Shown: positions 21,077 through 57,141 of the stretch, piece by piece
How the letters are laid out: each line of letters opens with the position of its first letter
Numbering within the stretch: position 1 is the stretch's first letter
NCBI RefSeq assembly: GCF_002007205.1
Contig: NZ_LAZS01000006.1
Span: 496,001-560,000, forward strand
Origin: Ensifer adhaerens
Lineage (GTDB): Bacteria; Pseudomonadota; Alphaproteobacteria; Rhizobiales; Rhizobiaceae
DNA length: 64,000 bases
Direction of reading: 5' to 3'
The notes under the pieces: model-generated
Seen by the model: the letters and a program-made list of their open reading frames with translations, nothing else
Database searches by the model: none
What the model was told of the DNA's origin: nothing
Made by a program: the position numbers and the translations under genes

Positions 21077-21310
21077 ATGACCAACCAAGCGAACGCCACC
21101 CCGTTGGCGGCTGCGCAGACCTGCGCGCGCGAACTCCTGCAATCGGGGCATGACTATCTCGATATCGCCAATGGCTTTTTCAGTGCGGCAGCCGGCATTC
21201 TATCGGTGCTGACTGGCCGTGAACCGGAAGTAGCCAAGCTCGCTACGGCCTGGGCACTCCTCGGATGCGCCATTGATGCTAAGGGGGCTCGCGCGGATGG
21301 CTGCAAATGA
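21077..21310 (+). CDS. Hypothetical phage protein before the tape measure (77 aa)
   Basis: The ATG at 21077 lies downstream of AAGGAAA. The 77 residues are mostly alpha-helical with an Ala-rich hydrophobic segment (IANGFFSAAAGILSVLTG and VAKLATAWALLGCAI) that could be a membrane hairpin or helical bundle. It overlaps the tape-measure start by 14 bp. Its position recalls tail-assembly chaperones, but no frameshift heptamer or homology is seen. Confidence 0.5.
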   Translation: MTNQANATPLAAAQTCARELLQSGHDYLDIANGFFSAAAGILSVLTGREPEVAKLATAWALLGCAIDAKGARADGCK

Positions 21311-39624: not shown

Positions 39625-40812
39625 TCAGTTTCCGAGACTGTTGATGTTGTCGGCGATCGAGAAGCCGGAATTGGCGATGCCCACCGGCTGAGCGACGAAG
39701 TTCAGGAACTTCGAGAAATCGACCGACGGGTGACGCGAGGCGTAGATGACGTCGCGGTTCTTGATCGGGAAGGTCTGACCGACGATCAGGCTGTCCGGCT
39801 TGCTCATGTCGAAGCGGTAGACGATCGGGTAGCGGCCGACGTTGTCGGTCTTCATGCCCTTGCGCAGCATTTCGTTGAAACGCTGTTGGCCGAGCAGGCT
39901 CATCACGACATCGGGCTCTTCGTAGCGGAAGATGAAGTAGCCCTTCATGTCGAGCGTGTAGTCCGCACCGCCGCCGGCAAGCCCCATGGCCTCGAGCAAA
40001 TTGAGATCGTTGGCGCCGAACTCGACGCGCTGGTTGGCCTTGACCGCACCGAGGATCGTGAAACGTCGCGGATCGCGCGTCACGAAAATCTGGTCGCCCG
40101 GCTTGACGTGGATGTTTTCCGACGGGTTGTCGATGATCGACTTCAGGAGAACCGTTCCGGTCTTCTTGCCGCGCACCAGCGTGACGAAGGTTTCGTAGGG
40201 CTGCGCGACCGGACCGCCGGCCTTGGCGATGACCTCGTTGATCGTCTCGTCGACGAGGCTGAGCGGCACCACCGACGACCTACCGACGGCGCCCGAAACC
40301 GTGACGTTGCGCGACGCGGTGCTCATGCTGGTGACGATCACGTCCGGCTCGACGGCCTTCTGCTTCAGCGCTTCCAGGATTTCCTGGCGCGCCTGTTCCA
40401 GCGTCAGGCCGGCAAAGCGAACCGGACCAACATAGGGGATCGCCGCCTTGCCGTCCGGCTGAACGACGAGATCGATGCTGGTCTGCTTGGAATCCTGCGT
40501 CGAAAACAGGCCGTCGCTGCCGGCTTCGAAGATCGAAACTTTCAGTGCGTCACCGACGCCGATCACGACCCGGCCTACACCGCCGCCAACGCCGAACCGG
40601 CGGTTCAACGTCGAGGAGACATAGTCGGAGACGAGGCGCGCCGAGCGGCCGTCCACATCGACGATGTCGAAGACGGTCGCGTTCTGGCGGCCGATTTCGG
40701 CACCGGACTGGCCGGCGTCCTTGACGATCGCTCCGGCCAGCGGCCCTTCACCAGGCACAGCCTGGCATCCGACGAGGGCGGAACAAAGCAGAAGGGCACT
40801 GACTCGTTTCAA
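39625..40812 (-). CDS. rkpU: Outer-membrane capsule export lipoprotein RkpU (Wza/KpsD-type)
   Basis: The 395-residue protein begins with a lipoprotein signal (VSALLLCSALVGCQAVPGEG, lipobox Cys16) and contains the polysaccharide export (OPX) domain: IGVGDALKVSIFEAGSDGLF, VVQPDGKAAIPYVGPVRFAG, LTLEQARQEILEALKQKAVE, then SLBB-like repeats (VTVSGAVGRSSVVPLS and FTILGAVKANQRVEFG). It would form the outer-membrane exit channel for the K antigen. The start is TTG at 40812 with GGAG 8 nt upstream. It is divergent from rkpA, as in the rkp-1 region of S. meliloti. Confidence 0.9.
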   Translation of the reverse strand: MKRVSALLLCSALVGCQAVPGEGPLAGAIVKDAGQSGAEIGRQNATVFDIVDVDGRSARLVSDYVSSTLNRRFGVGGGVGRVVIGVGDALKVSIFEAGSDGLFSTQDSKQTSIDLVVQPDGKAAIPYVGPVRFAGLTLEQARQEILEALKQKAVEPDVIVTSMSTASRNVTVSGAVGRSSVVPLSLVDETINEVIAKAGGPVAQPYETFVTLVRGKKTGTVLLKSIIDNPSENIHVKPGDQIFVTRDPRRFTILGAVKANQRVEFGANDLNLLEAMGLAGGGADYTLDMKGYFIFRYEEPDVVMSLLGQQRFNEMLRKGMKTDNVGRYPIVYRFDMSKPDSLIVGQTFPIKNRDVIYASRHPSVDFSKFLNFVAQPVGIANSGFSIADNINSLGN

Positions 40813-41219: not shown

Positions 41220-44200
41220 ATGGCTGTTGAGATTATTGGGCGTGCATGCCTCGCCCCTGGAGCAGAATCGCCCTCGGCGTTGTTCAAACTTCTACGTCAG
41301 GGCAAGTGCACCGTCACCAGCATTCCATCGGATCGCTGGGACGTCGCGCGATTCTGGCATCCCGTCATGGGCACCCAGGGGAAAACCTATTCCTTCGCGG
41401 CCGGCGTTCTGGATCAGCTCTACGATTTCGATCCGGCCGTCTTCGGCATGTCGCAGCGCGAGGCCATGTATATGGACCCGCAGCAGCGCGTGCTGCTCCA
41501 GCTCGCCTGGCGCGCGCTTGAAGACGCCAACATCTCGGCAACGTCGTTGCATGGCGAAAACGTCGGTGTCTATATCGGCGCATCGAGCCTCGATCACGCC
41601 AACCTGACCGTCGAGGATCCGGCGGCGGCCGGGCCCTATTTCATGACCGGCAACACGCTGTCGATCGTCTCGAACCGCATCTCGCACATCTTCGGTCTCA
41701 GCGGCCCGAGCATGACGGTCGACACCGCCTGTTCCTCCTCGCTGGTCGCGCTCGACCAGGCGATGCGGGCACTGACATCGGGCGAGATCGACACGGCCAT
41801 CGTCGGCGGCGTCAACATTCTTGCCCACCCCCTGCCTTTCGTCGGCTTCGCCCAGGCGCGCATGCTGTCGCCGGAAGGCCTCTGCCGCGCCTATGACAAT
41901 GACGGCGCCGGCTACGTGCGCGCCGAAGGCGGCGTGGTCTTCGTGCTGCGCCGTTCCGACCGGGCGCGGCGGGAGAAAGACCGCAGCTATGCGCGCATCG
42001 TCGCGACCGGCGTAAATTCGGCCGGGCGCACCAACGGCATTTCGCTGCCGTCGCGCGAAGCCCAGGCCAATCTGCTGAGGGCAATCTACGAAGGAAACGG
42101 CATCGACGCCAATCAGGTGGCCTTCGTCGAAGGTCACGGCACCGGCACCAAGGTCGGCGACCCGGCCGAGGTCTGGTCGATCGGAACGGTCATCGGCGCC
42201 AAGCGCCGCGCTCCGGTGCCGATCGGCTCGATCAAGTCGAACATCGGCCATACCGAACCGGCCTCCGGCCTCTTCGGCATGCTGAAAGCCGTGATGGCGC
42301 TCGAAAACAACTACCTGCCGGCTTCGCTGCATTTCGACACGCCGAACGAGCATATCGACTTCGACGGCCTGAACGTGCGCGTCACGGCAAACCCGATCGA
42401 GCTTCTGCGCGGCAAGCGCGCGCGCCTCGCCGGTATCAACTCCTTCGGCTTCGGCGGTGCCAACGCGCATGTCGTCATCAGCGACCCCGAACCGGCAGCC
42501 GATGAAAAGGCCGTAAACCCGTCGTCTTCCGGACATGTTTTCCTGGCGAGCGCCCATACGGCGTCGAGCCTGGAGGCGCTTCTCAGCGACTACAAGACGG
42601 CTTTCGCCCATGCTTCCAAGGGCGAAGCGCGCGCGATGATCGCCGCATCGGGTGCCAACCGCACCCATATGCGCCATCGTTTTGCGGCGCGCAGCGATCA
42701 GCCCGAGGATATTGTGCGCGCGATCGCGAGCCACCTGGAAAAGCCGGGCTCCGGTATCGGCGAGATCGGCGAGGCCGTCGCGCGCGACGCCAAGGTCGCC
42801 TTCGTCTTTTCGGGCAACGGCTCGCAGTGGGCCGGCATGGGCGTGGAAGCCTTCCGCGAAAACCTGCATTTCCGCCAGTGTTTCACCTCGGTCAGCGCAC
42901 TGTTCAAGTTCCATTCCGACATCACGCTCACCAATCTCCTTTCCGATCCCGACCTCGACAAGAAACTGGCCGACACCAAGATCGCCCAGCCGCTGCTGTT
43001 TGCCGTGCAGGCCGCCCTGTCGGACTCGCTGGTTGCCATGGGCATCAAGCCGGTCGCCGTCTTCGGCCATTCCGTCGGCGAAATTGCCGCCGCCTACGCG
43101 GCCGGCGCGCTCTCGCTCGTCGATGCCGTTTCGATCGTCGCCAAGCGCTCGCTGCACCAGGACCTGCTTGCCGGCCACGGCACCATGGCCGCCGTCATGC
43201 TCGGCGAGGAAGCCGCCCGTGCCTTTGCCGAAGCGCGTGGTCTGGACGAACTCTGTGTCGCTGCAGTCAATGCCCACAATTCCGTGACGATCTCGGGTCC
43301 GGCCGAGCAGATCTCGGCCTTCCGCGATGCCGCCCGCAAGGCGAAGATCCCGGTCCAGATCCTCGACATCAATTACCCGTTCCACCACCCGATCATCGAC
43401 CGGGCGAAGGACGCCTTCCTCTCGGACATCCCGGACATCGCGCCACGTCGTACGGAACTCACCTATCTCTCGACGGTCACAGGCGCCGCGCTCGAGGGCA
43501 CGCAGCTCGATCCGGACTACTGGTGGAAAAACGTCCGCGAGCCGGTCCGCTTCCAGGCGGCTGCAGAAGCCGCGATCGAAATGGGCTGCCGCCTGTTCAT
43601 CGAAATCTCGCCGCGCCCGATCCTCTCCTCCTACGTCAAGGAGACGATCAAACAGGCCGCGGCTCCCGGCATGGTGGTGCCCACGCTGCTCAGAGACGTC
43701 GCCGAAAGCGGCCAGGATCCGATTTCGGCCGCCATGGCGCGTGCCGTCGCGCATGGCGCCGTGGTCGACACGACCCGGGTCTTCGGCAAGCGTAATGCCT
43801 CGATCGCCCTGCCAAGCCTGCCCTTCGAGCCTGTCGAACTGCGCCCGGCAGCAACGACCGATGCCACCGACCTTTTCGGCCGGACCGCTCGGCCCTACCG
43901 CCTGACCGGCTGGCGCAGCGATCCGAACAGCGGCAGCTGGAAGAACCATATCGACGCCCACCTCTTCCCGGACCTTGCCGAACACGTTGTCGACGGCAAG
44001 GCGATCCTGCCGGGCAGCGGCTTCATCGAAATCGCCGTTGCCGCGGCGCAGCAGTTCTATGGCAGTGACGAAGTCGAGGTCACCAATCTCGAAATCGTCC
44101 GGCCGCTGGAGCTCAGCGACACGAAGATCATGGAGCTGTCGACGGTTATGTCACCGGAGACCGGCGACATCGAGATTCGCTCGCGCGAACGGCTTTCGGA

Positions 44201-47200
44201 AGACGACTGGGCCGTGCATGCGGTTGCCCGCTGCCGCAAGCCGTTGCCGGCGGAAGAGCGCGCCTATCCGTCGCTTGCGGGCCTCGCGAAGACGGCAACG
44301 GTGGGCCCTGCCCGCGCCTACGAAACGGCGCGGCAATTCGGTCTCGACTATGGCCCGCGCTTCCAGCTGCTGGCGAAGGCGGTTGCCTACGGCGACCGGC
44401 TGGTCGACGTCGAACTGAAGACAGCCGACGCCACGGGACATCCGCTCGTCAGCTATGCGCTGAACCCGATTTCGGTCGATGCGACCTTCCACGGGCTGGT
44501 GGCACTCTTCGACCGGTTCACCGGCGACAAGAGCGGCGCGCCTTACATTCCGGTCCGTTTCGGCTCGGTGCGGGTCGTCAACGGCGGCCTGCCGATCGCC
44601 CGCGCCATGATCGAGATCGAGCGCGTCAGCGCCAATTCGATCAAGGCGAAGTTCCATTTCTTCGGCCAGTCCGGCGAACCGATCGCCCATTTCGAGGATT
44701 GCCGCTTCCGCCGCACCTATCTGCGCAAGCACAAGACGCTCGATGCGCTGTCCTTCCACTACGAGGCGGTGCAATCGGAAGCCGCCCTGCCAGGTCTTCA
44801 GCGCAACAGCCTGGTGCCGGTGTCGATCGCCATGCCGGCTGCCGGCGAGGCCGGCGTCGACAATGCAACGCTCTTGTTCAATGCAGCCATCTACCGCGCC
44901 TGCCAGGAGATCGCTCTCAAGCTCGCCAAGGGACGCTCGACGATTAAGGGCGGCAACCTGCCTGGCGATTTCGCCTTCCAGTGTTTCCTGACGAGCTGCC
45001 TCTATGTGCTGGAGGATGCCGGGATCAGCCAGCACAAGGATGGCGTCTGGACCGTCGCGCAGGAATACACCCTGCCGAGCGTGCCCGAAATTCTGAGCGA
45101 GCTTTACGGCGAGCGGCCCGACCGTGCCGTCGAGGCCGTGCTGATCAACAACGCCTACGCGGAAGCGCTCGCCCGTATCGAAGCGCTGCAGGCCGGCGAC
45201 GAAGCGAACTCCGGCTCGAGCTTCATCAGCGACGCCACGCTTGACCATCAGGCCGTTCATTCGGAGGCAAGCCGCCAACGGATGACCCACGTGCTCGCGG
45301 CCCTTGAAAAGGTCTTGGCAACGCAGCCGGCCGGAGCGCGTCTGCGCATCGTCGAAATCGGCAGCGTATCCGCTGGCTTCACCCGGCGGCTGGCAACGCT
45401 TACCGAGAAGCATGGCGCAAGCCTTACCGTCTTCGAAGCACGCGACAACGCCCAGCGGGGCCTCGAGCTCGCCTTCGAAAACGACGCCCATGTGCGCATC
45501 CTCAAGAAGGGTGAGCTCGCAACGCTTGCGTCCTTCGACCTTGCCGTCAGCGCCTCCGACGCGCTCTATGGCCTGATCGAGGACGATGTCGCCGTTCGCA
45601 CGGCGCTGCGGACCGCGCTGCGCGATACGGGCGGACTGATTGCCGCCGTCAGTGCGCCTTCGCTGTTCAACGATTTCGCGCTTGGCCTGTCGGAAGGCTG
45701 GTTCGCGCACAGCCAGACGGCGGAATTCCCGATCGGCAACCTGGCAGCGGTCCCGCACTGGCAGAAATGTCTTGGCGATCTCGACCTGCGCGACATCGAT
45801 ATTGCCGACCGTGAATGTGCAAGCGGCAACGTCATCCTGGTCGAAGCGCGCGGCGCGGCAACGGCCGCCGTCGGCGCTGCGGTGCCGGCTTCCGGCCCCT
45901 ACCTGCTGCTGGAGACCGCTGGGCATGAACAGCACGAGCCCTCTGATTCAGCTGTTCGCGTCAGCCTGACCGGCGACGCGTCCGCGGACAAGGTCGTGCT
46001 TCTGCAGGCCTTCGAGGCCCTGGGAGACCAACCGCTTCGTGCAGTCTTCCTTGCCGCGACGACGGCTGCGTCGCGCACCGACGATTCCGCCTCTCTGCAA
46101 ACGCAGATCCTCGTGCTCGGCACATTTGCCGAAGCGTTGCGCCAGCACATCGGCGGCACCGAGCCCGCCGATGACAAGCGGCCCCGTCTCGTACTCGTTG
46201 CCCCCGGCGGCGCGCCGATCGCCAGCCGGACGGTGGGAGCGGCGGTTGCAAGCGACGGCGTCAATGCCGGCCTCTGGGCGTTCGCCCGCGTGCTTCAGAA
46301 CGAGTACGAATTCCTCGACATCCACGCGCTCGATATCGACGGTTCTCCGACGACGGCTGCTCAGATGGCTGCGGCATTGCCTCTGTTGACGGTTGCCGGA
46401 GCGAACCGCGAGTGGCTGCTCGAAGGCGAAGAGGGCGCCGCGCTCTCCGAGATCCGGGCCGTGCCGGGTCCGGTCGACAATGCGCACGCAGCAACAGCGG
46501 CCTTCAAGGCCGCCACGATCCGCCAGCGCGTCAGCTCTCAGGTCGGCAGCATCGTCTGGGAAGAAAGCGACATTCCGGCCGCAGGTCCGGGTGACGTCGT
46601 CGTCGCGGTTGCGGCGACCGGCCTCAACTTCCGCGACGTGATGTGGGCAATGGGCCTGCTGCCGGAAGAAGCGCTCGAGGACGGTTTCGCAGGCGCGACG
46701 ATCGGCATGGAGCTTTCCGGCCACGTGGTTGCCGTCGGCGACGGTGTCGATGACCTCGCCGTCGGCGACGCCGTCATGGCGATCGCGTCCTCCGCCTTCT
46801 CGACCCATGCGGTCGTCTCGCGCGCCGGCGTCGCCAGGCTGCCGCAGTCGGTCAGCCCCGTCGCCGCGGCGACGGTCCCCGTCGCGTTCCTGACGGCCTA
46901 CTACGCGATGGTCGAGCTCGGGCGGATCCAGCCGGACGAGACGATCCTGATCCATGGCGCCGCCGGCGGTGTCGGTCTCGCAGCGCTCCAGGTCGCAAAG
47001 CTGAAGGGCGCCAAGGTGATCGCCACGGCGGGATCGCGTGAGAAGCGTCGCTTCCTGTCGATGCTCGGCGCCGACCACGTCTTCGATTCCCGTTCGCTGG
47101 ATTTCGTCAACGACGTTCGCGCCGTGACGGACGGTGAAGGCGTCGACCTCGTGCTGAATTCCCTCTTCGCCGAAGCGATGGAGCAGAGCCTGGCGCTGGT

Positions 47201-48731
47201 CAAACCGTTCGGCCGCTTCCTTGAACTCGGCAAGCGCGACTACTACGCCGACAGCAAGATCGGCCTTCGGCCGTTCCGCCGCAACGTCAGCTATTTCGGC
47301 ATCGACGCCGACCAGCTGCTGGTCAATCAGCCGAAGCTGACCAAGCGGATCTTCACCGAGATCGGCGCGCTGTTCGAAGACGGCAAGCTGACGCCGCTTC
47401 CCTATCGCGCCTTCGACTTCGACGAGATCGGCAATGCCTTCCGGCTGATGCAGAATGCCGGGCATATCGGCAAGATCGTCGTGCTGCCGCCGGTCGCCGG
47501 CAAGCACCGTGTCGCCAAGCGTCCGCATGGCGGCATGAAGGTCGACCCGACCGGCATACATCTCGTCGTCGGCGGCATCGGCGGCTTCGGCCTGGCTGCC
47601 GCCAACTGGCTCGTCGAAAAGGGCGCGACGAAGATCGCGCTCTGCTCGCGCCGCGGCCAGGCGGATGCCGAGACCATGGCCATGATGGAGATCTGGGCAA
47701 AGGCCGGCGTCTCCGCCACGGTTCACGCCTGCGACGTCACCGATCCGGTGGCGACGGAGCGCCTGCTCAAGCAGTTGCGTGCAGCGGCACCGCTCCGTTC
47801 GGTGGTGCATGCCGCGATGGTGCTCGACGACGCGCTGATCAGCAACCTCAACCGCGAGCGCAACCGGCCGGTCATCGACACTAAGGCAAAGGGTGCTGCG
47901 GTTCTCGACGCTCTGACCAGCGATGACACGCTCGACAACTTCATCCTGTTCTCGTCGGCGACGACGCTTGTCGGCAACCCCGGACAGGCGAACTACGTCG
48001 CGGCCAACGGCTATCTCGAAGGTCTCGCCCGCGCCCGCCGCGCCCGCGGCCTTGCGGGCCTTGCCGTCGGCTTCGGCGCGATTGCCGACAAGGGCTATCT
48101 CGTCCAGAACACGGATGTGAACGACATTCTCGCCAAGCGCATCGGCAAGACCGCGCTCAAGGCACAGACGGCGCTCGACATGGTCGAAAGCCATCTGGCC
48201 TTCGATCCGGGCACCGTCGATGCGGCAACCGTGATGATCTCGGAAATCGACTGGTCGGCCGCGCGCAACTTGCCGGTCGCCAAGAACGCGCTCTTCGAAG
48301 TCATCTTGCGCAGCGCCGACCAGCATGCGACGGGCGGCGAAGGCACGAAAATGGACTTGGTCGCCATGATCGAGGGCAAGTCGCCGCAGGAGGCCGAGGA
48401 TATCCTCTTCGACCTCGTCGCCGGCGAGATCGCCGCGATCCTGCGCGTGTCGAAGGATACGGTCACGCGCGCCAAGGTGTTGAAGGAAATCGGCCTCGAC
48501 AGCCTGATGGCCGTCGAACTCGGCATGAGCTTCCAGCAGAATACCGGCTTCGACATGCCGCTGAGCGGCGTCGCCGACAACACGACGGTTGGCGATGTCG
48601 CCCGCAAGCTCTATGAAAAGGTCAGCAAGCGCGACCAGAGCGACGATGCCGAGCCCGCCGACGACAAGATCGTCAGCGAACTTGCGCAAAGGCACGTTGG
48701 GACGGCAAAGGAAAAAGCACAAGGCCAATGA
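41220..48731 (+). CDS. rkpA: RkpA, single-module reducing polyketide/fatty acid synthase
   Basis: A 2503-residue megasynthase. Domains in order: ketosynthase (about 1-420; Cys171 in DTACSSSLVALD, His in VEGHGTGTKVGD and NIGHTEPASG), acyltransferase (520-830; Ser618 in FGHSVGEIAAAYAAG), dehydratase (900-1170; His922 in EHVVDGKAILPG), a long region with a degenerate methyltransferase fold (1230-1560; LRIVEIGSVSAGFTRRL lacks the Gly-rich SAM loop), enoylreductase (1765-2090; HGAAGGVGLAALQVAK), ketoreductase (2110-2330; VVGGIGGFGLAA and QANYVAANGYLEG), and an ACP (Ser2428 in GLDSLMAVELG). No thioesterase. In S. meliloti RkpA is needed for K-antigen; it probably builds the lipid part. Stop overlaps rkpG by ATGA. 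Confidence 0.95.
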   Translation: MAVEIIGRACLAPGAESPSALFKLLRQGKCTVTSIPSDRWDVARFWHPVMGTQGKTYSFAAGVLDQLYDFDPAVFGMSQREAMYMDPQQRVLLQLAWRALEDANISATSLHGENVGVYIGASSLDHANLTVEDPAAAGPYFMTGNTLSIVSNRISHIFGLSGPSMTVDTACSSSLVALDQAMRALTSGEIDTAIVGGVNILAHPLPFVGFAQARMLSPEGLCRAYDNDGAGYVRAEGGVVFVLRRSDRARREKDRSYARIVATGVNSAGRTNGISLPSREAQANLLRAIYEGNGIDANQVAFVEGHGTGTKVGDPAEVWSIGTVIGAKRRAPVPIGSIKSNIGHTEPASGLFGMLKAVMALENNYLPASLHFDTPNEHIDFDGLNVRVTANPIELLRGKRARLAGINSFGFGGANAHVVISDPEPAADEKAVNPSSSGHVFLASAHTASSLEALLSDYKTAFAHASKGEARAMIAASGANRTHMRHRFAARSDQPEDIVRAIASHLEKPGSGIGEIGEAVARDAKVAFVFSGNGSQWAGMGVEAFRENLHFRQCFTSVSALFKFHSDITLTNLLSDPDLDKKLADTKIAQPLLFAVQAALSDSLVAMGIKPVAVFGHSVGEIAAAYAAGALSLVDAVSIVAKRSLHQDLLAGHGTMAAVMLGEEAARAFAEARGLDELCVAAVNAHNSVTISGPAEQISAFRDAARKAKIPVQILDINYPFHHPIIDRAKDAFLSDIPDIAPRRTELTYLSTVTGAALEGTQLDPDYWWKNVREPVRFQAAAEAAIEMGCRLFIEISPRPILSSYVKETIKQAAAPGMVVPTLLRDVAESGQDPISAAMARAVAHGAVVDTTRVFGKRNASIALPSLPFEPVELRPAATTDATDLFGRTARPYRLTGWRSDPNSGSWKNHIDAHLFPDLAEHVVDGKAILPGSGFIEIAVAAAQQFYGSDEVEVTNLEIVRPLELSDTKIMELSTVMSPETGDIEIRSRERLSEDDWAVHAVARCRKPLPAEERAYPSLAGLAKTATVGPARAYETARQFGLDYGPRFQLLAKAVAYGDRLVDVELKTADATGHPLVSYALNPISVDATFHGLVALFDRFTGDKSGAPYIPVRFGSVRVVNGGLPIARAMIEIERVSANSIKAKFHFFGQSGEPIAHFEDCRFRRTYLRKHKTLDALSFHYEAVQSEAALPGLQRNSLVPVSIAMPAAGEAGVDNATLLFNAAIYRACQEIALKLAKGRSTIKGGNLPGDFAFQCFLTSCLYVLEDAGISQHKDGVWTVAQEYTLPSVPEILSELYGERPDRAVEAVLINNAYAEALARIEALQAGDEANSGSSFISDATLDHQAVHSEASRQRMTHVLAALEKVLATQPAGARLRIVEIGSVSAGFTRRLATLTEKHGASLTVFEARDNAQRGLELAFENDAHVRILKKGELATLASFDLAVSASDALYGLIEDDVAVRTALRTALRDTGGLIAAVSAPSLFNDFALGLSEGWFAHSQTAEFPIGNLAAVPHWQKCLGDLDLRDIDIADRECASGNVILVEARGAATAAVGAAVPASGPYLLLETAGHEQHEPSDSAVRVSLTGDASADKVVLLQAFEALGDQPLRAVFLAATTAASRTDDSASLQTQILVLGTFAEALRQHIGGTEPADDKRPRLVLVAPGGAPIASRTVGAAVASDGVNAGLWAFARVLQNEYEFLDIHALDIDGSPTTAAQMAAALPLLTVAGANREWLLEGEEGAALSEIRAVPGPVDNAHAATAAFKAATIRQRVSSQVGSIVWEESDIPAAGPGDVVVAVAATGLNFRDVMWAMGLLPEEALEDGFAGATIGMELSGHVVAVGDGVDDLAVGDAVMAIASSAFSTHAVVSRAGVARLPQSVSPVAAATVPVAFLTAYYAMVELGRIQPDETILIHGAAGGVGLAALQVAKLKGAKVIATAGSREKRRFLSMLGADHVFDSRSLDFVNDVRAVTDGEGVDLVLNSLFAEAMEQSLALVKPFGRFLELGKRDYYADSKIGLRPFRRNVSYFGIDADQLLVNQPKLTKRIFTEIGALFEDGKLTPLPYRAFDFDEIGNAFRLMQNAGHIGKIVVLPPVAGKHRVAKRPHGGMKVDPTGIHLVVGGIGGFGLAAANWLVEKGATKIALCSRRGQADAETMAMMEIWAKAGVSATVHACDVTDPVATERLLKQLRAAAPLRSVVHAAMVLDDALISNLNRERNRPVIDTKAKGAAVLDALTSDDTLDNFILFSSATTLVGNPGQANYVAANGYLEGLARARRARGLAGLAVGFGAIADKGYLVQNTDVNDILAKRIGKTALKAQTALDMVESHLAFDPGTVDAATVMISEIDWSAARNLPVAKNALFEVILRSADQHATGGEGTKMDLVAMIEGKSPQEAEDILFDLVAGEIAAILRVSKDTVTRAKVLKEIGLDSLMAVELGMSFQQNTGFDMPLSGVADNTTVGDVARKLYEKVSKRDQSDDAEPADDKIVSELAQRHVGTAKEKAQGQ

Positions 48732-50143
48732 GCACGAACGGAAACGGCCCAGGCGCATCCAAGATGACCAGCAGCCTCAAGGAGAACCTGCTGGACCGGA
48801 TGAGAAACACGCATCAATCCTCCGAGCGCAACCGCATGGCGCGCTCGGAGCGGGAGATGCCGCCGCCGGCGCGCAGGCAGCAGGCCCGTTTCGAGGACCT
48901 GCCGGAATACAAGCAGGTGATGACGCAGAAGTTCGCGAGCGAGCAGCTCGGCATTGCAAATCCGTTCTATCGCGCGCACCAGACGGCGGCGGGGGCCACC
49001 ACCGTCATCGATGGCCGCAAGCTGATCAACTTCGCCTCCTATGACTATCTCGGCCTCAACCACCATGCGGAAGTGCTGGCGCGAGCGCGGGATACCATCG
49101 GCACCTTCGGCATCTCCGCCTCGGCGAGCCGTCTCGTCGCCGGCGAACGCCCGGTGCATATGGCGCTCGAAGAGAAGATCGCAAGCTTCTATGGCGTCGA
49201 TGCCGCCGTCTGCTTCGTCAGCGGTTACCTGACCAATGTCGCCGCCATCAGCTGCCTGATGGGACCGAAGGACCTCGTCGTCCACGACGAGTTCATCCAC
49301 AACAGCGCCCTTGCCGGCATCAAGCTCTCGGGCGCGACCCGCCGGCTGTTCAAGCACAACGACGTCGCCGACCTCGAACACGTGCTGCGCACCGTTGCCG
49401 GCGACTATCGCCGCATCATGGTGATCGTCGAGGGCATCTACTCGATGGACGGCGATGTCGCCGACCTGCCGGCACTTTTGAAGCTTCGGGCCGAGTATGG
49501 CTTCTGGCTGATGGTCGACGAGGCGCATTCGCTTGGCGTTCTCGGCAAGACCGGCCGCGGCCTTGCGGAACATTTCGGCGTCGATCCGCACGAGATCGAC
49601 ATCTGGATGGGCACGCTGTCGAAGACCACCTCGAGCTGTGGCGGCTACATTGCCGGCAGCGATGCGCTGGTCGAAGTGCTGAAGGCATCCGCGGGCGGCT
49701 TCGTCTATAGTGTCGGCCTCGCGCCGGTGCTGGCGGCCGCGGCGACCGCGAGCCTGGAGGTGCTGGAACGCGAGCCGGGGCGGACAACGGCACTGCGCCG
49801 CAACGGTGCCCTCTTCCTCAAGCTTGCCAAGGAAGCGGGCCTGGACACGGGCCTCTCGAGCGGCTTTTCCGTCGTGCCGGTTCTCGTCGGCGATTCCCTG
49901 CGTGCGGTTCAGCTTTCAAACGACCTGCTTGCCGAAGGGGTCAACGCGCTGCCGATCATCCACCCGGCGGTGCCCGAGGGACTTGCGCGCCTGCGCTTCT
50001 TCATCACCAGCGATCATACCGAAGAGCAGATCCGCCGGACGGTAACGCTGACGGCCGAGCGTCTGGCCGACCTTACCGAACGCAACTTCGGTCTCGGCGG
50101 CATCGACATCGACCAGATGATGAAAGCGCTCTCGGCGCGATAA
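48728..50143 (+). CDS. rkpG: RkpG, PLP-dependent alpha-oxoamine synthase-like acyltransferase
   Basis: The 471-residue protein has the fold of 8-amino-7-oxononanoate synthase and serine palmitoyltransferase: LINFASYDYLGLNHHAEVLA, GTFGISASASRLVAGERPVH, VHDEFIHNSALAGIKLSGA, the MVDEAHSLGVLGKTGRG PLP-phosphate region and Lys299 in GTLSKTTSSCGGYIAG as Schiff-base lysine. About 75 residues at the N-terminus are extra, charged and probably disordered. Such enzymes condense an acyl thioester with an amino acid with loss of CO2. It is translationally coupled to rkpA, which has no thioesterase, so RkpG probably releases the RkpA chain. Substrate amino acid unknown. Confidence 0.9.
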   Translation: MSTNGNGPGASKMTSSLKENLLDRMRNTHQSSERNRMARSEREMPPPARRQQARFEDLPEYKQVMTQKFASEQLGIANPFYRAHQTAAGATTVIDGRKLINFASYDYLGLNHHAEVLARARDTIGTFGISASASRLVAGERPVHMALEEKIASFYGVDAAVCFVSGYLTNVAAISCLMGPKDLVVHDEFIHNSALAGIKLSGATRRLFKHNDVADLEHVLRTVAGDYRRIMVIVEGIYSMDGDVADLPALLKLRAEYGFWLMVDEAHSLGVLGKTGRGLAEHFGVDPHEIDIWMGTLSKTTSSCGGYIAGSDALVEVLKASAGGFVYSVGLAPVLAAAATASLEVLEREPGRTTALRRNGALFLKLAKEAGLDTGLSSGFSVVPVLVGDSLRAVQLSNDLLAEGVNALPIIHPAVPEGLARLRFFITSDHTEEQIRRTVTLTAERLADLTERNFGLGGIDIDQMMKALSAR

Positions 50144-50169
50144 GCGAAGGCCCCGCATTGCCGCCGGGA

Positions 50170-50280
50170 ATGCTGGAGCGGTTCCGGTAAACAGTTCGCC
50201 ACGGAAACGCTCTATCTCTTTGTTTCACGCAATTCCGGACACAGGGCCACCTCGCGCCTTTCCGGAATTGCTCCACAACG
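50170..50280. repeat. Dispersed palindromic intergenic repeat (RIME-like), copy 2
   Basis: Read on the minus strand it runs GGAGCAATTCCGGAAAGGCG, then GTCCGGAATTGCGTGAAAC and AAAGAGATAGAGCGTTTCCG, matching the same family as 30601-30715. Inverted GCAATTCCGGA and TCCGGAATTGC form a long hairpin. It fills most of the rkpG-rkpH gap. Confidence 0.7.
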
Positions 50281-50290
50281 GACGACCTGC

Positions 50291-51130
50291 ATGACGCATG
50301 TGATCATCACCGGTGGCTCGAGCGGGATCGGCCTGGCGGTCGCGTCGATCTATGCGGCGCGCGGCGCACGCGTCTCGCTGATCGCACGCTCTCGCGACCT
50401 TCTCGAACAGGCGCAGGCGAAGCTGGCCGCCTCCAACGGGGCGAGCGCCGGCAACGTCAGGATCGAGACCACCGATGTCGCGGAGGAACGCGACGTCGCA
50501 GCGGCGATCCGGCGCTGCGAACAGGCTTTCGGTCCCTGCGATATCCTGGTGACGTCGGCGGGTATCGTCGAGCCGGGCCGTTTCGAGGAACTCGACAGTG
50601 CCTCGTTCCAACGGCAGATGGAGGTCAATTTTTCCGGCACGGTGCATGCGGTGCGGGCCGTCTATGACGGCATGAAGCGGCGCGGACAGGGCCGGATCAT
50701 GATGATCTCCTCGGGCTCCGGCCTCATCGGCATCTATGGCTATTCGGCCTATTGCGCCTCGAAGTTCGCGCTTCACGGCTTTGCCCAGGCCCTCCGCTTC
50801 GAAGCACGCCCGCACGGCGTGAGCGTCTCCGTGTGTTTCCCGCCGGACACTGAGACGCCGCAGCTTCAACGCGAACTTGCGACCCGCCCCTCCGAAGCCG
50901 AGAAGATCATGGGCGTGGTCCGGCCCTGGCCGGCGGACCTGGTGGCGAAGCGGATTGCCGGGGGCATCGACCGGGGCCGGTTCGAGATCTTTTTCGGGCT
51001 GACACTCTACCTGCTCGGTCGTTTCGGACCGGCCGTTCGCCCCGTTATCCACTGGTGGTTCGACAGGGCGATCGCACAGGACAGCGCCCCCGCCGCGCAT
51101 AATCGTGGAGTGTCGGAGCACCAGACCTGA
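50291..51130 (+). CDS. rkpH: RkpH, short-chain dehydrogenase/reductase
   Basis: The 279-residue SDR shows VIITGGSSGIGLAVASIYAA (NADPH-binding TGxxxGIG), LVTSAGIVEPG (NAG-like motif), MISSGSGLIGIYG with the catalytic Ser, and YSAYCASKFALHGFA (YxxxK). The C-terminal 35 residues include a hydrophobic stretch (FEIFFGLTLYLLGRFG) that could anchor it to a membrane. The overall layout, SDR core plus C-terminal anchor, is that of 3-ketodihydrosphingosine reductases. Coming right after an alpha-oxoamine synthase, it would reduce the 3-keto product to an amino alcohol. This is inferred from pairing, not shown. Confidence 0.9.
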   Translation: MTHVIITGGSSGIGLAVASIYAARGARVSLIARSRDLLEQAQAKLAASNGASAGNVRIETTDVAEERDVAAAIRRCEQAFGPCDILVTSAGIVEPGRFEELDSASFQRQMEVNFSGTVHAVRAVYDGMKRRGQGRIMMISSGSGLIGIYGYSAYCASKFALHGFAQALRFEARPHGVSVSVCFPPDTETPQLQRELATRPSEAEKIMGVVRPWPADLVAKRIAGGIDRGRFEIFFGLTLYLLGRFGPAVRPVIHWWFDRAIAQDSAPAAHNRGVSEHQT

Positions 51131-51227: not shown

Positions 51228-52820
51228 TTGGCGTTGCTTCCCTTTCAGTTGCACGATTACCCGATAACACTGACGCTGAGCTGTTATCTGCTGTCCTGTG
51301 CGGTGATCTTCTTCACCGACCGCTTCGCTCTGCCGAAGCGGGAGCGGCGCGCCAATCCCTCACCCTTCGGAAGCACGCAGGACGTGGTCGATGTGCTTGC
51401 CCGCCTGCCGGTCATCGCGCTGGTCTTTGCCGGCTTCTTCGCCGGCTCCTGGCGTCCGCTCTATGCGGCAGCCGGCACGATGAGCTTCTTCATCATCTTC
51501 ACCGGCATTTCCCGCGCCAAGTTCAAGTTCATCCGCGAGCCGCTGATCTTTTCCGACATCGCGCTCGTCGTCGACGTTTTCAAGTACAAGACGATCTTCT
51601 ATGCGAGCTCGCTGAACGTCGTCTTCTGGACCGTGGCGTTCCTCTACGTCTTCGGTGTTTCCGGCCTCTACTTGTACTTCGAGCCGTCCATCCTGCCGGA
51701 TCGGGGCAAGGCCTTCTGGATCCTGTTGATGCTCGGCGTCGCCTACGGTCCCTGGCTCTTGCTCTTCTATGGCCCGGTTAACCGGCCGACGGCGGCATTG
51801 GTGCAGCGGCTGCTCAAGGTGCTCGACGTCAAGATGAACACGGTGCGCTTCGGCACCTTCGGTTCGGTCGTCTTCCGCTTCATTATCTGGCTCGGTGTCC
51901 GTCGCGAAAAGATCGTCGCGGAACTCTCGGAGATCGTCCGGGCCGCCGTGCAGGATCTGATCGGCGACGATGGCTCGCCGCTGATCGTCGTCTGGCAATC
52001 GGAATCCTTCATCGACATGCGGCACTTCGGTGTCGATACGCTGAAACTGCCGACGCTGGACCGGTTGCGGCGCGAGGCGGTGCAATGGGGCCGGCTCAGC
52101 AGCGTGTTCGAAGGCGGCTATACGCTGCGCACCGAATTCGCCGTCATCAGCGGGCTGGAGCCCGACGACATCCATGTCGATGCGAGCTATCCGTATCTGC
52201 GCGCGTCGCACTATGCCGACGTCGTCTGGCCGGGAAAGATGAAGCGGGCGGGCTGGAACACCCACTTCATCCACCCCTATGACCGGACCTTCTTTCTCAG
52301 GCACAAGGCGATGCCGCAGCTCGGCTTCTCCAAGCTGACGATGCTCGACGGTTTCGACCATCACCCCGAGCGAGACGGACCCTACGTCACCGACGAGAAG
52401 CTCGCGGCGAAGGTGATCGATGCGTGCGAGAAACTGCCCGAAGATGACAACGGCTTCATCTTCGTCGCATCCATGGCCAATCACGGCCCATGGGAGCCGG
52501 GCCGTGTCGGAGACCTCACCAATCCCGTCGATATCTACCTCGCCATCCTCGAACAGTCCGACGCAGCGCTCAACACATTGAGCGAGCGGCTCGACAAGCT
52601 CGACCGTCCGGTCTGGCTCGTCTTCTACGGCGACCACGCGCCGCTGCTCAAATCCTTTGCCGACCCCTTTCCGGATCCGCGTACGGACTACATGATCGTG
52701 CCGCTCGCTAAGGCAAAGCGGTCGTCCCACAAGCCGGTCGAGCCGAGCAGCGTCGAGGCGTGGAACCTGATCGAGGCGCTTCTCAACCGCGCGAACCTGA
52801 GAAAGGATAAGCTGCGGTAG
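51228..52820 (+). CDS. rkpI: RkpI, LtaS-like membrane transferase/sulfatase-fold protein
   Basis: The 530-residue protein has five to six N-terminal membrane helices (about 10-215) and a C-terminal alkaline-phosphatase-superfamily domain: IVVWQSESFIDM (metal-ligand Glu259), GGYTLRTEFAVISGL (catalytic Thr299), FIHPYDRTFF, ANHGPWEPG and VFYGDHAPLL (metal ligands). This is the architecture of lipoteichoic acid synthase and phosphoethanolamine or phosphoglycerol transferases, which act on the outer side of the inner membrane. It begins with TTG at 51228, about 97 bp after rkpH. In a capsule locus it might transfer a phospho-group to the capsule lipid or polymer. Confidence 0.85.
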   Translation: MALLPFQLHDYPITLTLSCYLLSCAVIFFTDRFALPKRERRANPSPFGSTQDVVDVLARLPVIALVFAGFFAGSWRPLYAAAGTMSFFIIFTGISRAKFKFIREPLIFSDIALVVDVFKYKTIFYASSLNVVFWTVAFLYVFGVSGLYLYFEPSILPDRGKAFWILLMLGVAYGPWLLLFYGPVNRPTAALVQRLLKVLDVKMNTVRFGTFGSVVFRFIIWLGVRREKIVAELSEIVRAAVQDLIGDDGSPLIVVWQSESFIDMRHFGVDTLKLPTLDRLRREAVQWGRLSSVFEGGYTLRTEFAVISGLEPDDIHVDASYPYLRASHYADVVWPGKMKRAGWNTHFIHPYDRTFFLRHKAMPQLGFSKLTMLDGFDHHPERDGPYVTDEKLAAKVIDACEKLPEDDNGFIFVASMANHGPWEPGRVGDLTNPVDIYLAILEQSDAALNTLSERLDKLDRPVWLVFYGDHAPLLKSFADPFPDPRTDYMIVPLAKAKRSSHKPVEPSSVEAWNLIEALLNRANLRKDKLR

Positions 52821-52848
52821 CGGCGGTCGACGGATGGAGGACGCTTCG

Positions 52849-54162
52849 ATGATATCGGCCGGTGCGGCCGGCCGCCCGGGACAGCGGGTTTTCCTGTTCC
52901 TGCAGGGCCCCTCCTCGCCGATCTTCGGCAAGATCGCCGACCGGCTCGAAGCCCTTGGCCACCGCTGCCTGAGGATCAATCTGAACGCCGGCGACCAGAT
53001 CTTCTGGCGACGCAAGGGCGGCTTCAACTATCGCGGCACGGCGGCGGGCTGGCCCGGCTATCTTGAGACTTTCATCGCGACTCACGGCGTCACCGATATG
53101 CTGCTTCTCGGCGAGGAGCGGCCCTATCACCGGGCAGCCACCGCCGTCGCCAGGCAGGCGGGCGTCAGCGTTGCCATCATCGAAATGGGCTATCTGCGGC
53201 CGGACTGGCTGACGCTCGAGCGCAACGGCATGTCGTCGAACTCCCATTTTCCGAACGACGCCGGACAGATCCTTTCGGCTGCTTCAAGCCTGCCGGAGCC
53301 GGACTGGCGCAAGCGCTACAGCCAGACGTTCCTCGCCGATGCGAGCTACGACCTGCTCTACAATCTGCCGAACGTCTTCTTCTGGTTCCTGTTTCCTCAC
53401 TATCGCCGCCACGCGATTTTTCATCCGCTCGCCGAATATGCCGGCTGGGTGCGCCGGCTGCTGTCCGAGAAGCGGCGCAACGCGGAAGCCGAGGCGACCG
53501 TCGCGAAACTTCTTTCGGACGATGCCCCCTACTTCGTCTATCCACTGCAGCTCGAAACCGACTTTCAGCTCCGGGCGCATTCGCCCTTCCACAGCCAGAG
53601 GGATGCGATCTCAGAGGTTCTGGCTTCCTTCGCGGCAAGCGCTCCGCAAGATGCCCGCCTCGTCTTCAAGGTTCATCCGCTCGACAATGACCTCATCCCC
53701 TGGCGCAGCTTCATCGAACAGCGCGCAGCCGGATTGGGCCTGGGCGGGCGCGTCTTCTACCTCGATGGCGGCAACCTCGACACGCTTGGCGAGGCGAGTG
53801 CCGGCATGGTCACGGTGAATTCGACGGCCGGCCTGCATGCCCTGAAACAGGGGCGATCGGTCAAGGTGCTCGGGACTGCCGTCTTCGATATTGCCGGGCT
53901 GACCGACCAGCAGCCGCTCGACACCTTCTGGCAGGGGCCGCAAGCGCCGCAGCCTGAACTCAGTGATGCGATGTTCCGCCTGCTCGCCGCGTCGATCCAG
54001 GTGCGCGGCAACTTCTATTCCCGCGCCGGAACCGACGCCGGTGCAGAAGCGATCGCCCGGCGGCTGGACGAAAGCAGCCTCAATGAGCCCGGCGCCTTCA
54101 TTGACCCGCCGCCGCGGCAGAAGCCGGCGAAGCGGGTGCGTTCCCCTTCGCGCCAAGGGTAA
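52849..54162 (+). CDS. rkpJ: RkpJ, KpsS-like capsule lipid-linker protein
   Basis: The start at 52849 follows GGAGG at 8 nt, better than the ATG at 52834. The 437-residue protein resembles KpsS/KpsC (beta-Kdo transferase class): RVFLFLQGPSSPIFGKIADR, LLLGEERPYHRAATAVARQ, VAIIEMGYLRPDWLTLERNG, YFVYPLQLETDFQLRAHSPF and FKVHPLDNDLIPWRSF, VNSTAGLHALKQGRSVKVLG. In group 2 capsules these proteins add Kdo to the lipid terminus. It follows rkpI after 28 bp. The nearby KpsF isomerase fits a Kdo-dependent step. Exact acceptor in rhizobia is unknown. Confidence 0.88.
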   Translation: MISAGAAGRPGQRVFLFLQGPSSPIFGKIADRLEALGHRCLRINLNAGDQIFWRRKGGFNYRGTAAGWPGYLETFIATHGVTDMLLLGEERPYHRAATAVARQAGVSVAIIEMGYLRPDWLTLERNGMSSNSHFPNDAGQILSAASSLPEPDWRKRYSQTFLADASYDLLYNLPNVFFWFLFPHYRRHAIFHPLAEYAGWVRRLLSEKRRNAEAEATVAKLLSDDAPYFVYPLQLETDFQLRAHSPFHSQRDAISEVLASFAASAPQDARLVFKVHPLDNDLIPWRSFIEQRAAGLGLGGRVFYLDGGNLDTLGEASAGMVTVNSTAGLHALKQGRSVKVLGTAVFDIAGLTDQQPLDTFWQGPQAPQPELSDAMFRLLAASIQVRGNFYSRAGTDAGAEAIARRLDESSLNEPGAFIDPPPRQKPAKRVRSPSRQG

Positions 54163-56994: not shown

Positions 56995-57141
56995 GATGAC
57001 CCCAATTCTGCGAAGACTTAAGCAACAGGCAGATATTCTGCCCGCCAGACCCATTGACGGCAGATAAGCGCTTTTTCTTGGCAAACCAAGTCTTGGAAGC
57101 AGAGTTTGGGGGAAAACTGGCCGCGATCAGCGTCGTTTTCG

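What the first reader, a model, noticed from the sequence alone, without database searches (positions are those of the whole stretch)
41220..51130. RkpA-RkpG-RkpH look like an assembly line for a sphingoid-type amino-lipid, the same logic as fumonisin synthesis
Seen in sequence: a single-module highly reducing synthase (KS-AT-DH-psiMT-ER-KR-ACP) with no thioesterase, coupled by ATGA to an alpha-oxoamine synthase with an intact PLP lysine (Lys299), then an SDR with TGxxxGIG and YxxxK and a possible C-terminal membrane anchor. Known: serine palmitoyltransferase and ketodihydrosphingosine reductase use this pair of steps, and fungal sphinganine-analogue toxins are made by a reducing PKS, an alpha-oxoamine synthase and a ketoreductase. 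Inference: RkpG off-loads the RkpA chain by decarboxylative condensation with an amino acid, and RkpH reduces the ketone, giving a long-chain base that could anchor the K-antigen. The rkp-1 genes are known for capsule; the lipid chemistry is the unsettled point.
Basis: partly seen in the sequence, partly recalled or inferred. Interest (0 to 1): 0.8.

Follow-up and report, generated by a model that had tools for sequence, protein, structure and literature searches.

The report
Probable sphingolipid anchor pathway for capsule
Five neighbouring genes in this rhizobial genome look like an assembly line that builds a sphingolipid with a phosphoglycerol head and hands it to a capsule enzyme, which would make it the capsule's membrane anchor; this rests on gene comparison and on a published relative, and has not been shown in this organism.

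Summary
Observation confirmed: rkpA (single-module reducing PKS, no thioesterase), rkpG (alpha-oxoamine synthase, Lys299) and rkpH (SDR) lie as stated. The inferred chemistry is supported and already demonstrated for a relative: Pseudomonas fluorescens SgaAB makes C24-C28 sphinganines, SgaB uses L-serine, and phosphoglycerol sphingolipids occur (PMC12134224). That text never mentions capsules, rkp or wcb.

New here are the next two genes. RkpI profiles as a phosphoglycerol transferase (GacH 5.9e-38, LtaP 7.2e-21; catalytic residues invariant in 20 of 20 rows). RkpJ is KpsS-like; E. coli KpsS uses (lyso-)PG. So rkpA-G-H-I-J reads as a route to phosphoglycero-sphinganine, a lyso-PG look-alike for RkpJ to start the capsule on. 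In 50 genomes with an RkpG relative, 22 of 25 with RkpI have PF05159 against 6 of 25 without.

Not shown: any product here, chain length, amino acid, Kdo attachment, or which membrane face RkpI works on. Six of 13 alphaproteobacterial PKS-AOS genomes lack PF05159, so the lipid must have other uses.

The parts
39625..40812 (-). rkpU-like polysaccharide export protein (Poly_export PF02563, SLBB_2), divergent from rkpA
   Evidence: Pfam; the name rkpU for the gene upstream of rkpA in sinorhizobia is from PMC7902896 passages
41220..48731 (+). rkpA: iterative highly reducing type I PKS, KS-AT-DH-(psiMT)-ER-KR-ACP, no TE
   Evidence: Pfam, motifs intact
48501..48503 (+). codon of the ACP phosphopantetheine serine (GLDSL, Ser2428)
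   Evidence: motif scan, PP-binding domain
48728..50143 (+). rkpG: ACP-linked alpha-oxoamine synthase, SPT-like
   Evidence: ATGA overlap with rkpA
49040..49042 (+). RkpG Tyr105 (SYDYLG), equivalent to Tyr73 of SPT 2JG2; Asn in the BioF, KBL and ALAS controls, but also in 6 of 9 bacterial SPT rows
   Evidence: Y in 82 of 87 rows
49622..49624 (+). RkpG Lys299, PLP lysine
   Evidence: invariant in 87 of 87 rows
50291..51130 (+). rkpH: SDR, proposed 3-ketosphinganine reductase
   Evidence: Pfam adh_short; an RkpH-like SDR within about 4 kb of RkpI in 20 of 22 regions read
51228..52820 (+). rkpI: membrane protein with sulfatase-fold domain, proposed phosphoglycerol transferase
   Evidence: PF00884; GacH/LtaP/LtaS profile hits; invariant E259, T299, R301, E303, H349, R358, H419, D469, H470 in 20 of 20 rows of A2, window included
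52122..52124 (+). RkpI Thr299, aligned with a Thr of GacH read as the nucleophile
   Evidence: alignment with GacH; invariant in A2; role of the residue recalled from LtaS/GacH work
52834..54162 (+). rkpJ: KpsS-like beta-Kdo transferase (Capsule_synth PF05159)
   Evidence: Pfam 354 bits; NCBIfam KpsS 202.6 bits, below its cut-off of 600
55984..57084 (-). kpsF-like arabinose-5-phosphate isomerase (Kdo precursor supply)
   Evidence: TIGR00393 291.5 bits, over its cut-off 203.7

Best explanation
rkpA-G-H-I-J is a five-step route to a sphingolipid capsule anchor, with genes in the order of the steps. (1) RkpA iteratively builds a saturated acyl chain on its ACP [inferred from intact domains]. (2) RkpG off-loads it by PLP-dependent decarboxylative condensation with an amino acid, most likely L-serine, giving a 3-ketosphinganine [shown for the relative SgaB with acyl-CoA, inferred here]. 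(3) RkpH reduces the ketone to sphinganine [inferred]. (4) RkpI transfers glycerol phosphate, presumably from phosphatidylglycerol, to the primary hydroxyl, giving phosphoglycero-sphinganine, whose head group is that of lyso-phosphatidylglycerol [lipids assigned so by mass were seen in MYb115; the enzyme assignment is inferred]. (5) RkpJ, a KpsS homologue, adds the first Kdo to the glycerol, and the capsule grows from there [inferred from E. coli KpsS]. My estimate: steps 1-3 about 0.85, step 4 about 0.7, step 5 with this lipid as acceptor about 0.55.
For: Experiment on a relative: PfSgaAB makes C24-C28 sphinganines plus lipids 154 Da heavier read as phosphoglycerol sphingolipids; SgaB strongly prefers L-serine (PMC12134224). 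RkpG (87 rows, window included): Lys299, His191, Asp264, His267 in 87/87; Ala266 (87/87) and Ser134 (82/87) match SPT and BioF, not KBL (Ser, Val) or ALAS (Val, Thr); Tyr105 matches S. paucimobilis SPT and Arabidopsis SPT2; ML tree puts 26 RkpG-family rows beside three eukaryotic SPT2 (SH-aLRT 95.8, UFBoot 98). Fusions: KS-AT-DH-ER-KR-ACP-AOS in one ORF with a 40%-identical RkpH-like SDR next (L108), AMP-ligase-ACP-AOS (L091, L121), ACP-AOS (L085). RkpI: GacH 5.9e-38, LtaP 7.2e-21, LtaS 3.7e-11, and nothing named phosphoethanolamine transferase among the 10 sequences at E 0.01. Linkage: J-H-I-A order in Burkholderia, Ralstonia, Cupriavidus, Pandoraea and two gammaproteobacteria; RkpI within 3.5 kb of PF05159 in 18 of 25 genomes; within 21 PF05159-positive alphaproteobacteria RkpI is in 5 of 7 with RkpA+G and 1 of 14 without (p 0.006). 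A Pseudomonas plasmid carries PKS, AOS, PhyH, KpsC-like, GNAT, LTA-synthase-family protein, SDR, KpsS-like, KpsC-like, KpsF, kdsB, kdsA together. S. meliloti rkpA is listed among genes that affect KPS (PMC5539429 passage); an exoA rkpH mutant of S. fredii HH103 is described as making no EPS nor KPS (PMC8227245 passage).
Against: No product, amino acid or anchor has been measured in this organism. RkpG's highest NCBIfam score is bioF (367.7 of 426.45), and no SPT cut-off is met (296/640, 278/500, 213/670). Six of 13 alphaproteobacterial RkpA+G genomes have no PF05159 at E 1e-20; G256 and G007 have an RkpI-like protein without an RkpG match at E 1e-90; two of 7 RkpA+G+PF05159 genomes lack RkpI (which scored at most 3 candidates a genome). 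Of 80 loci, 11 show no PKS upstream. The window's genome has one PF05159 protein, RkpJ, and so no KpsC of that family: what extends the Kdo chain is unexplained. Known GroP transferases of this fold act outside the cytoplasm (recalled) whereas KpsS acts inside: for the window's own RkpI six hydrophobic segments pass the threshold, which with N-out would also put its catalytic domain outside and would require the lipid to flip back. Other tree positions were not firmly rejected. RkpH is only 27-33% identical to the SDRs beside RkpI outside the rhizobia.
Confidence: 0.6

Rival explanations
1. RkpAGH make free sphingolipids for the envelope; capsule defects of rkp-1 mutants are indirect, and KpsS/RkpJ uses ordinary lyso-PG as in E. 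coli.
For: MYb115 holds free sphinganines and phosphoglycerol sphingolipids; 6 of 13 alphaproteobacterial RkpA+G genomes lack PF05159.
Against: Repeated linkage with KpsS-like genes and RkpI in several phylogenetic groups and on plasmids; RkpA+G genomes carry PF05159 in 7 of 13 against 14 of 372 others (p 7e-7, not corrected for ancestry).
Confidence: 0.2
2. RkpI decorates the polysaccharide with glycerol phosphate, as GacH does on the streptococcal group A carbohydrate (recalled), and plays no part in the lipid.
For: GacH is the best PDB match; relatives of this fold act outside the cytoplasm (recalled), and the window's RkpI shows six hydrophobic segments, which with N-out fits an outside catalytic domain.
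Against: Among 21 PF05159-positive alphaproteobacteria RkpI tracks RkpA+G (5 of 7) rather than capsule as such (1 of 14); an RkpH-like SDR lies within about 4 kb of RkpI in 20 of 22 regions read. In 9 of 16 full-length rows only five segments pass, which with N-out would mean a cytosolic domain.
Confidence: 0.22
3. RkpG condenses another amino acid (alanine as in fumonisin, or glycine), giving a base without the 1-hydroxyl needed for a 1-O-phosphoglycerol.
For: BioF controls (alanine users, recalled) share Ala266 and Ser134 with RkpG; these pocket residues do not by themselves separate Ser from Ala.
Against: SgaB, a relative, strongly prefers L-serine; Tyr105 is Asn in both BioF controls; the adjacent GroP transferase needs a hydroxyl acceptor.
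Confidence: 0.1
4. The older view: RkpA makes a special fatty acid, and RkpGHIJ modify and transport it as a carrier or anchor lipid, without sphingoid chemistry.
For: A 2012 genome paper still describes rkpGHIJ as modification and transport of a lipophilic carrier or anchor (PMC3557214 passage).
Against: RkpG has the complete PLP active site, PKS-AOS fusions exist, and SgaB catalyses an SPT reaction.
Confidence: 0.05

Closest known systems
PfSgaA/PfSgaB/PfSgaC of Pseudomonas fluorescens MYb115 (PMC12134224)
   Same: Iterative PKS + adjacent AOS + KDSR-like SDR; products sphinganines and lipids assigned as phosphoglycerol sphingolipids
   Different: Published as secondary metabolites acting on C. 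elegans, with no capsule, rkp or wcb in the main text. Locus-tag spacing SgaB-SgaC (RS19800-RS19775) equals AOS-SDR spacing in L207 (RS26440-RS26415), where the genes between include a KpsC-like gene and the LTA-synthase-family gene; that MYb115 has them too is inference.
rkp-1 region of Sinorhizobium meliloti / S. fredii
   Same: rkpA-G-H-I-J; the S. meliloti Ak57 copy is 81% (RkpA) and 87% (RkpG) identical
   Different: The passages read describe no chemistry beyond a lipophilic carrier or anchor
E. coli/Neisseria ABC-dependent capsule glycolipid: (lyso-)PG + KpsS/KpsC Kdo linker (PMC7694667 passages)
   Same: KpsS-type enzyme; phosphoglycerol head group as Kdo acceptor
   Different: Proposed acceptor is a sphingoid base made by PKS/AOS, not lyso-PG; no second PF05159 protein (KpsC) in the window's genome
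GacH / LtaP / LtaS phosphoglycerol transferases
   Same: Sulfatase fold and matching conserved residues in RkpI
   Different: Positive-inside loops suggest N-out, with five or six membrane segments, so the side of the catalytic domain is open; acceptor proposed to be sphinganine
Fumonisin/sphingofungin synthesis (HR-PKS + AOS + KDSR)
   Same: Reducing PKS, AOS, then a ketoreductase; FUM13 and SphF are named as KDSR homologues in PMC12134224
   Different: Fungal toxins; alanine in fumonisin (recalled); no phosphoglycerol or Kdo steps

Membership tests
Serine palmitoyltransferase (alpha-oxoamine synthase family) | PLP lysine and the conserved His/Asp/His/Thr set | tested here: met
   K299, H191, D264, H267 in 87/87 rows; T296 in 86/87
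Serine palmitoyltransferase (alpha-oxoamine synthase family) | Score over an NCBIfam SPT equivalog cut-off | tested here: not met
   295.9/640, 278/500, 213.3/670; so RkpG is not filed as one of those equivalogs
Serine palmitoyltransferase (alpha-oxoamine synthase family) | Groups with SPT rather than BioF/KBL/ALAS | tested here: inconclusive
   ML tree RkpG+SPT2 95.8/98, but bacterial SPT fall elsewhere in it; constrained-tree tests flawed (fast searches; BioF constraint split by eight unlabelled sequences) and do not reject KBL (p-AU 0.061) or bacterial SPT (0.105) placements
Serine palmitoyltransferase (alpha-oxoamine synthase family) | Condenses L-serine with an acyl thioester | not testable with these tools
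   Shown for SgaB in print
SgaAB-type PKS/SPT cluster | Mono-modular reducing PKS directly beside the AOS | tested here: met
   Window ATGA overlap; among relatives, separate PKS just upstream in 43 of 80 genome-contig loci, fused in 14, none upstream in 11, other in 12 by the script's rule; 13 of 16 alphaproteobacterial loci
SgaAB-type PKS/SPT cluster | Direct sequence relation to PfSgaB | tested here: inconclusive
   PfSgaB not obtained; Pseudomonas proxies 53% identical
3-ketodihydrosphingosine reductase | SDR with TGxxxGIG and YxxxK | tested here: met
   TGGSSGIG, YCASK
3-ketodihydrosphingosine reductase | Specific relation to eukaryotic KDSR/Tsc10 | not tested
   None named so among the 60 shown of 629 PDB matches; no KDSR sequence was compared
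Phosphoglycerol transferase (GacH/LtaP/LtaS) | Catalytic Thr, Glu, Asp, His and substrate His/Arg/His | tested here: met
   T299, E259, D469, H470, H349, R358, H419 invariant in 20 of 20 rows, window included; equivalence to LtaS residues recalled
Phosphoglycerol transferase (GacH/LtaP/LtaS) | Profile similarity to solved GroP transferases above other sulfatase-fold enzymes | tested here: met
   GacH 5.9e-38, LtaP 7.2e-21; best arylsulfatase 0.0046
Phosphoglycerol transferase (GacH/LtaP/LtaS) | Catalytic domain outside the cytoplasm | tested here: inconclusive
   Loops 1+3 richer in K/R than loops 2+4 in 16 of 16 full-length rows; a further segment besides five passes in 7 of 16, the window's among them (hand count)
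KpsS Kdo transferase | Capsule_synth domain (PF05159) | tested here: met
   354.2 bits
KpsS Kdo transferase | NCBIfam KpsS equivalog cut-off | tested here: not met
   202.6 of 600 bits; filed as KpsS-like

The most novel reading that the evidence does not exclude
A whole branch of ABC-exported, Kdo-linked capsules (rhizobia, Burkholderiales, Pseudomonas, Marinobacterium, Accumulibacter and others) is anchored not on lyso-phosphatidylglycerol but on a PKS-made phosphoglycero-sphinganine, with RkpI-type enzymes as the missing phosphoglycerol transferase, possibly inverted so that it works on the cytosolic face; in the Pseudomonas form a GNAT acyltransferase and a PhyH-type hydroxylase beside it could turn the anchor into a (phyto)ceramide.
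Probability: 0.45. Interest if true: 0.85.

Novelty: new variant of a known kind. Interest (0 to 1): 0.72.

Why it matters
It would give a chemical identity to the long unassigned rkp-1 (and wcbR/T-type) genes, propose the enzyme behind the phosphoglycerol sphingolipids reported in 2025, and suggest why SgaAB homologues are concentrated in Burkholderia (distribution from PMC12134224). It would also mean that bacteria not known as sphingolipid makers put a sphingolipid under their capsule. Each step can be tested in laboratory rhizobia.

Tried and rejected
Considered and set aside: RkpG as a second BioF or KBL (own genome has two Kbl L002/L003 and ALAS L004 over cut-off, and a BioF-like L005 at 323 of 426.45 bits; Tyr105 differs). 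A canonical SPT elsewhere in this genome: none over a cut-off. RkpI as a phosphoethanolamine transferase: none named so at E 0.01. Pairwise PDB similarity did not separate BioF/KBL from SPT (1.4e-66 against 2.8e-65). SPT Arg378 was not informative: 3 of 9 SPT rows have Arg. The constrained-tree tests were weak: run in fast mode (the SPT2 constraint, which the ML tree already meets, came out 31 log units worse), and the BioF constraint was unfair because eight unlabelled sequences nest in BioF. No promoter or terminator signal above shuffled expectation. No chance control was run for an SDR beside RkpI; SDRs are common genes.

Rows dropped: the alignment used 72 of the 80 genome-contig loci and 14 of the 16 relatives in A1 (near-identical or repeated ones left out); searches used 50 of the 80 (my choice, cap 50; close rhizobial kin, short contigs and others left out). 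RkpI counts keep matches of 276 bits or more: six further genomes with 85-103 bits and one (G731, 98 bits) were treated as other members of the fold. Three RkpG relatives without a neighbouring PKS (L035-L037) were left out of the 13 RkpA+G genomes.

Papers: no paper was returned; some searches returned 1, 1 and 3 (passages of PMC5539429 read, the others seen as listings); ('sphing' + 'KpsS') gave 17, 15 listed, by their titles mostly physiology and one mass-spectrometry review, none read. Kiss 1997 and Fraysse 2005 were looked up and are not held; Mueller 2009 was seen only as a citation.
Full report
Observation. RkpA (41220-48731) has KS, AT, DH, ER, KR and ACP by Pfam, intact catalytic motifs, an AT motif YPFH that I read as malonyl-type (rule recalled), no thioesterase, and a stretch of about 600 residues between DH and ER without a methyltransferase hit. 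RkpG (48728-50143) overlaps it by ATGA and has the PLP lysine Lys299. RkpH (50291-51130) is an SDR with TGGSSGIG and YCASK. RkpI (51228-52820) and RkpJ (52834-54162) follow on the same strand with gaps of 97 and 13 bases and must be included.

RkpG. In PDB searches it matches BioF/KBL and SPT about equally. No NCBIfam cut-off is met; the best score is bioF. In an alignment of 87 RkpG-family rows (window included) and 16 reference sequences, K299, H191, D264 and H267 never vary in the family; Ala266 (87/87) and Ser134 (82/87) agree with SPT and BioF but not with the glycine users KBL and ALAS; Tyr105 (82/87; Phe 4, Cys 1) agrees with S. paucimobilis SPT and Arabidopsis SPT2, where the BioF, KBL and ALAS controls have Asn, but 6 of 9 bacterial SPT rows also have Asn. 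The tree of 72 sequences and 349 columns, with 26 RkpG-family rows, makes the family one clade (100/100) beside three eukaryotic SPT2 (95.8/98); bacterial SPT fall elsewhere, and the constraint tests were weak.

Coupling to a PKS. Of 80 genome-contig loci holding an RkpG relative (the best 80 of 584 confirmed matches), the rule finds a separate PKS just upstream in 43, an RkpA-like match and the AOS in one ORF in 14, an AOS ORF of 700 aa or more in 10, a contig edge in 2 and no PKS upstream in 11. In five of the 10 (L053, L054, L056, L058, L084) an RkpA match overlaps the AOS frame and the rule misses it. Pfam on ten selected proteins shows KS-AT-DH-ER-KR-ACP-AOS (L108, cyanobacterium), KR-ACP-AOS (L112), AMP-ligase-ACP-AOS (L091, L121), ACP-AOS (L085), and five with KS and/or AT before the AOS but no PP-binding hit at E 1e-6 (L080, L096, L106, L109, L123). 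Next to the L108 fusion lies an SDR 40% identical to RkpH. The family thus looks like an ACP-linked off-loading AOS.

Published relative. A literature search found Peters et al. 2025 (PMC12134224; abstract, sections 8, 9, 15 and passages read). P. fluorescens MYb115 SgaA (iterative PKS) and SgaB (AOS) make C24-C28 sphinganines; SgaB binds L-serine (Kd 1.3 mM), condenses it with acyl-CoAs and hardly uses alanine or glycine; lipids 154 Da heavier are assigned as phosphoglycerol sphingolipids; SgaC is a KDSR-like SDR. The authors report 6101 homologous clusters, mostly Burkholderia. The words rkp, wcb and capsul do not occur in the main text, and the parts I read name no enzyme for the phosphoglycerol head.

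RkpI. Its first PDB hit is GacH (8.6e-8). A profile of 20 rows (window included) gives GacH 5.9e-38, LtaP 7.2e-21, LtaS 3.7e-11 and nothing named phosphoethanolamine transferase. Invariant residues E259, T299, R301, E303, H349, R358, H419, D469, H470 fit the phosphoglycerol transferase active site as I recall it from LtaS. Topology is open: loops 1+3 carry more Lys/Arg than loops 2+4 in 16 of 16 full-length rows (hand count), which suggests N-out. Nine of the 16 show five segments, which would put the catalytic domain in the cytosol with KpsS; seven, the window's RkpI among them, show a further segment, which in the window's case would put it outside, where this fold is known to act (recalled). 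In the second case the lipid would have to return to the inner leaflet.

Linkage. Among 385 alphaproteobacteria, 16 have an RkpG relative at E 1e-90 and 13 of these, the window's included, have RkpA beside it; 21 have PF05159, 7 have both (p 7e-7). RkpI-like proteins of 276 bits or more occur in 7, 5 of them with RkpA+G (p 4e-7). Within the 21 PF05159 genomes RkpI is in 5 of 7 with and 1 of 14 without RkpA+G (p 0.006; tests). These tests ignore shared ancestry, and one search scored at most 3 candidates a genome. Among 50 of the 80 genome contigs genomes, RkpI (385 bits or more) is in 25, PF05159 in 28, both 22 (p 5e-6); 18 of 25 RkpI lie within 3.5 kb of PF05159. In the 22 RkpI regions I read (three of 25 were not fetched), an RkpH-like SDR lies within about 4 kb of RkpI in 20, not in L200 and L206 (hand count; no chance control). 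The order J-H-I-A occurs in Burkholderia, Ralstonia, Cupriavidus, Pandoraea and two gammaproteobacteria (L189-L192, L195, L196).

Named clusters. Shinella plasmid pgSHIWSC3: RkpI, RkpJ, PKS, AOS, SDR, then ABC exporter genes. Caballeronia insecticola p2: SDR, LTA-synthase-family protein, PKS, LpxC-like, AOS, export genes; no KpsS in the stretch read. Pseudomonas plasmid pL21564-1: PKS, AOS, PhyH, KpsC-like, GNAT, LTA-synthase-family protein, SDR, KpsS-like, KpsC-like, KpsF, kdsB, kdsA. Pseudomonas sp. S37 has the AOS, PhyH, GNAT, LTA-synthase-family, SDR, KpsS-like and two KpsC-like genes on three contigs. The AOS-to-SDR locus-tag distance in pL21564-1 (25) equals that of SgaB to SgaC in MYb115, so MYb115 probably has the same genes between them (inference).

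Mechanism. E. coli KpsS adds Kdo to (lyso-)PG (PMC7694667 passages). Phosphoglycero-sphinganine presents the same phosphoglycerol head. The simplest reading is that RkpA-G-H-I make this lipid and RkpJ starts the capsule on it. A phospholipid anchor on S. meliloti 1021 poly-Kdo is reported in the title of Fraysse et al. 2005 (seen only as a citation); a phosphoglycero-sphinganine would also be a phospholipid, but I could not read the structure given there.

Limits. 

Noticed in passing
L207 21252-25013: In the Pseudomonas plasmid cluster a PhyH-type dioxygenase and a GNAT acyltransferase sit between the AOS and the LTA-synthase-family gene, with a KpsC-like gene between them; they could hydroxylate and N-acylate the long-chain base. 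Both are also in Pseudomonas sp. S37 (L185).
   Followed up: partly
L210 14907-15833; L059, L071, L081, L083, L086, L098: An LpxC-like deacetylase (PF03331) lies between PKS and AOS in Burkholderiales clusters (6 of 80 loci by tblastn); role unknown.
   Followed up: partly
L209 12365-13953: rkpI of S. meliloti Ak57 pSymB matches in two frames in the deposited record and is not in the gene table shown.
   Followed up: no
window genome: Only one PF05159 protein (RkpJ) in a 99.99% complete genome; many relatives have a second, KpsC-like one.
   Followed up: partly
L035-L037: RkpG relatives near RkpH-like SDRs but without a PKS (44% identical RkpH-like SDR in L037); possibly SPT/KDSR pairs fed by another acyl-ACP.
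   Followed up: no
L183 (G256): RkpI- and KpsS-like genes close together with no RkpG, PKS or RkpH-like match in the about 40 kb read (L183, L187, L188): an exception to the proposed linkage.
   Followed up: partly
window 21273-23579: Prophage tail tape-measure protein (TMP_2): a prophage or remnant upstream of the region.
   Followed up: no
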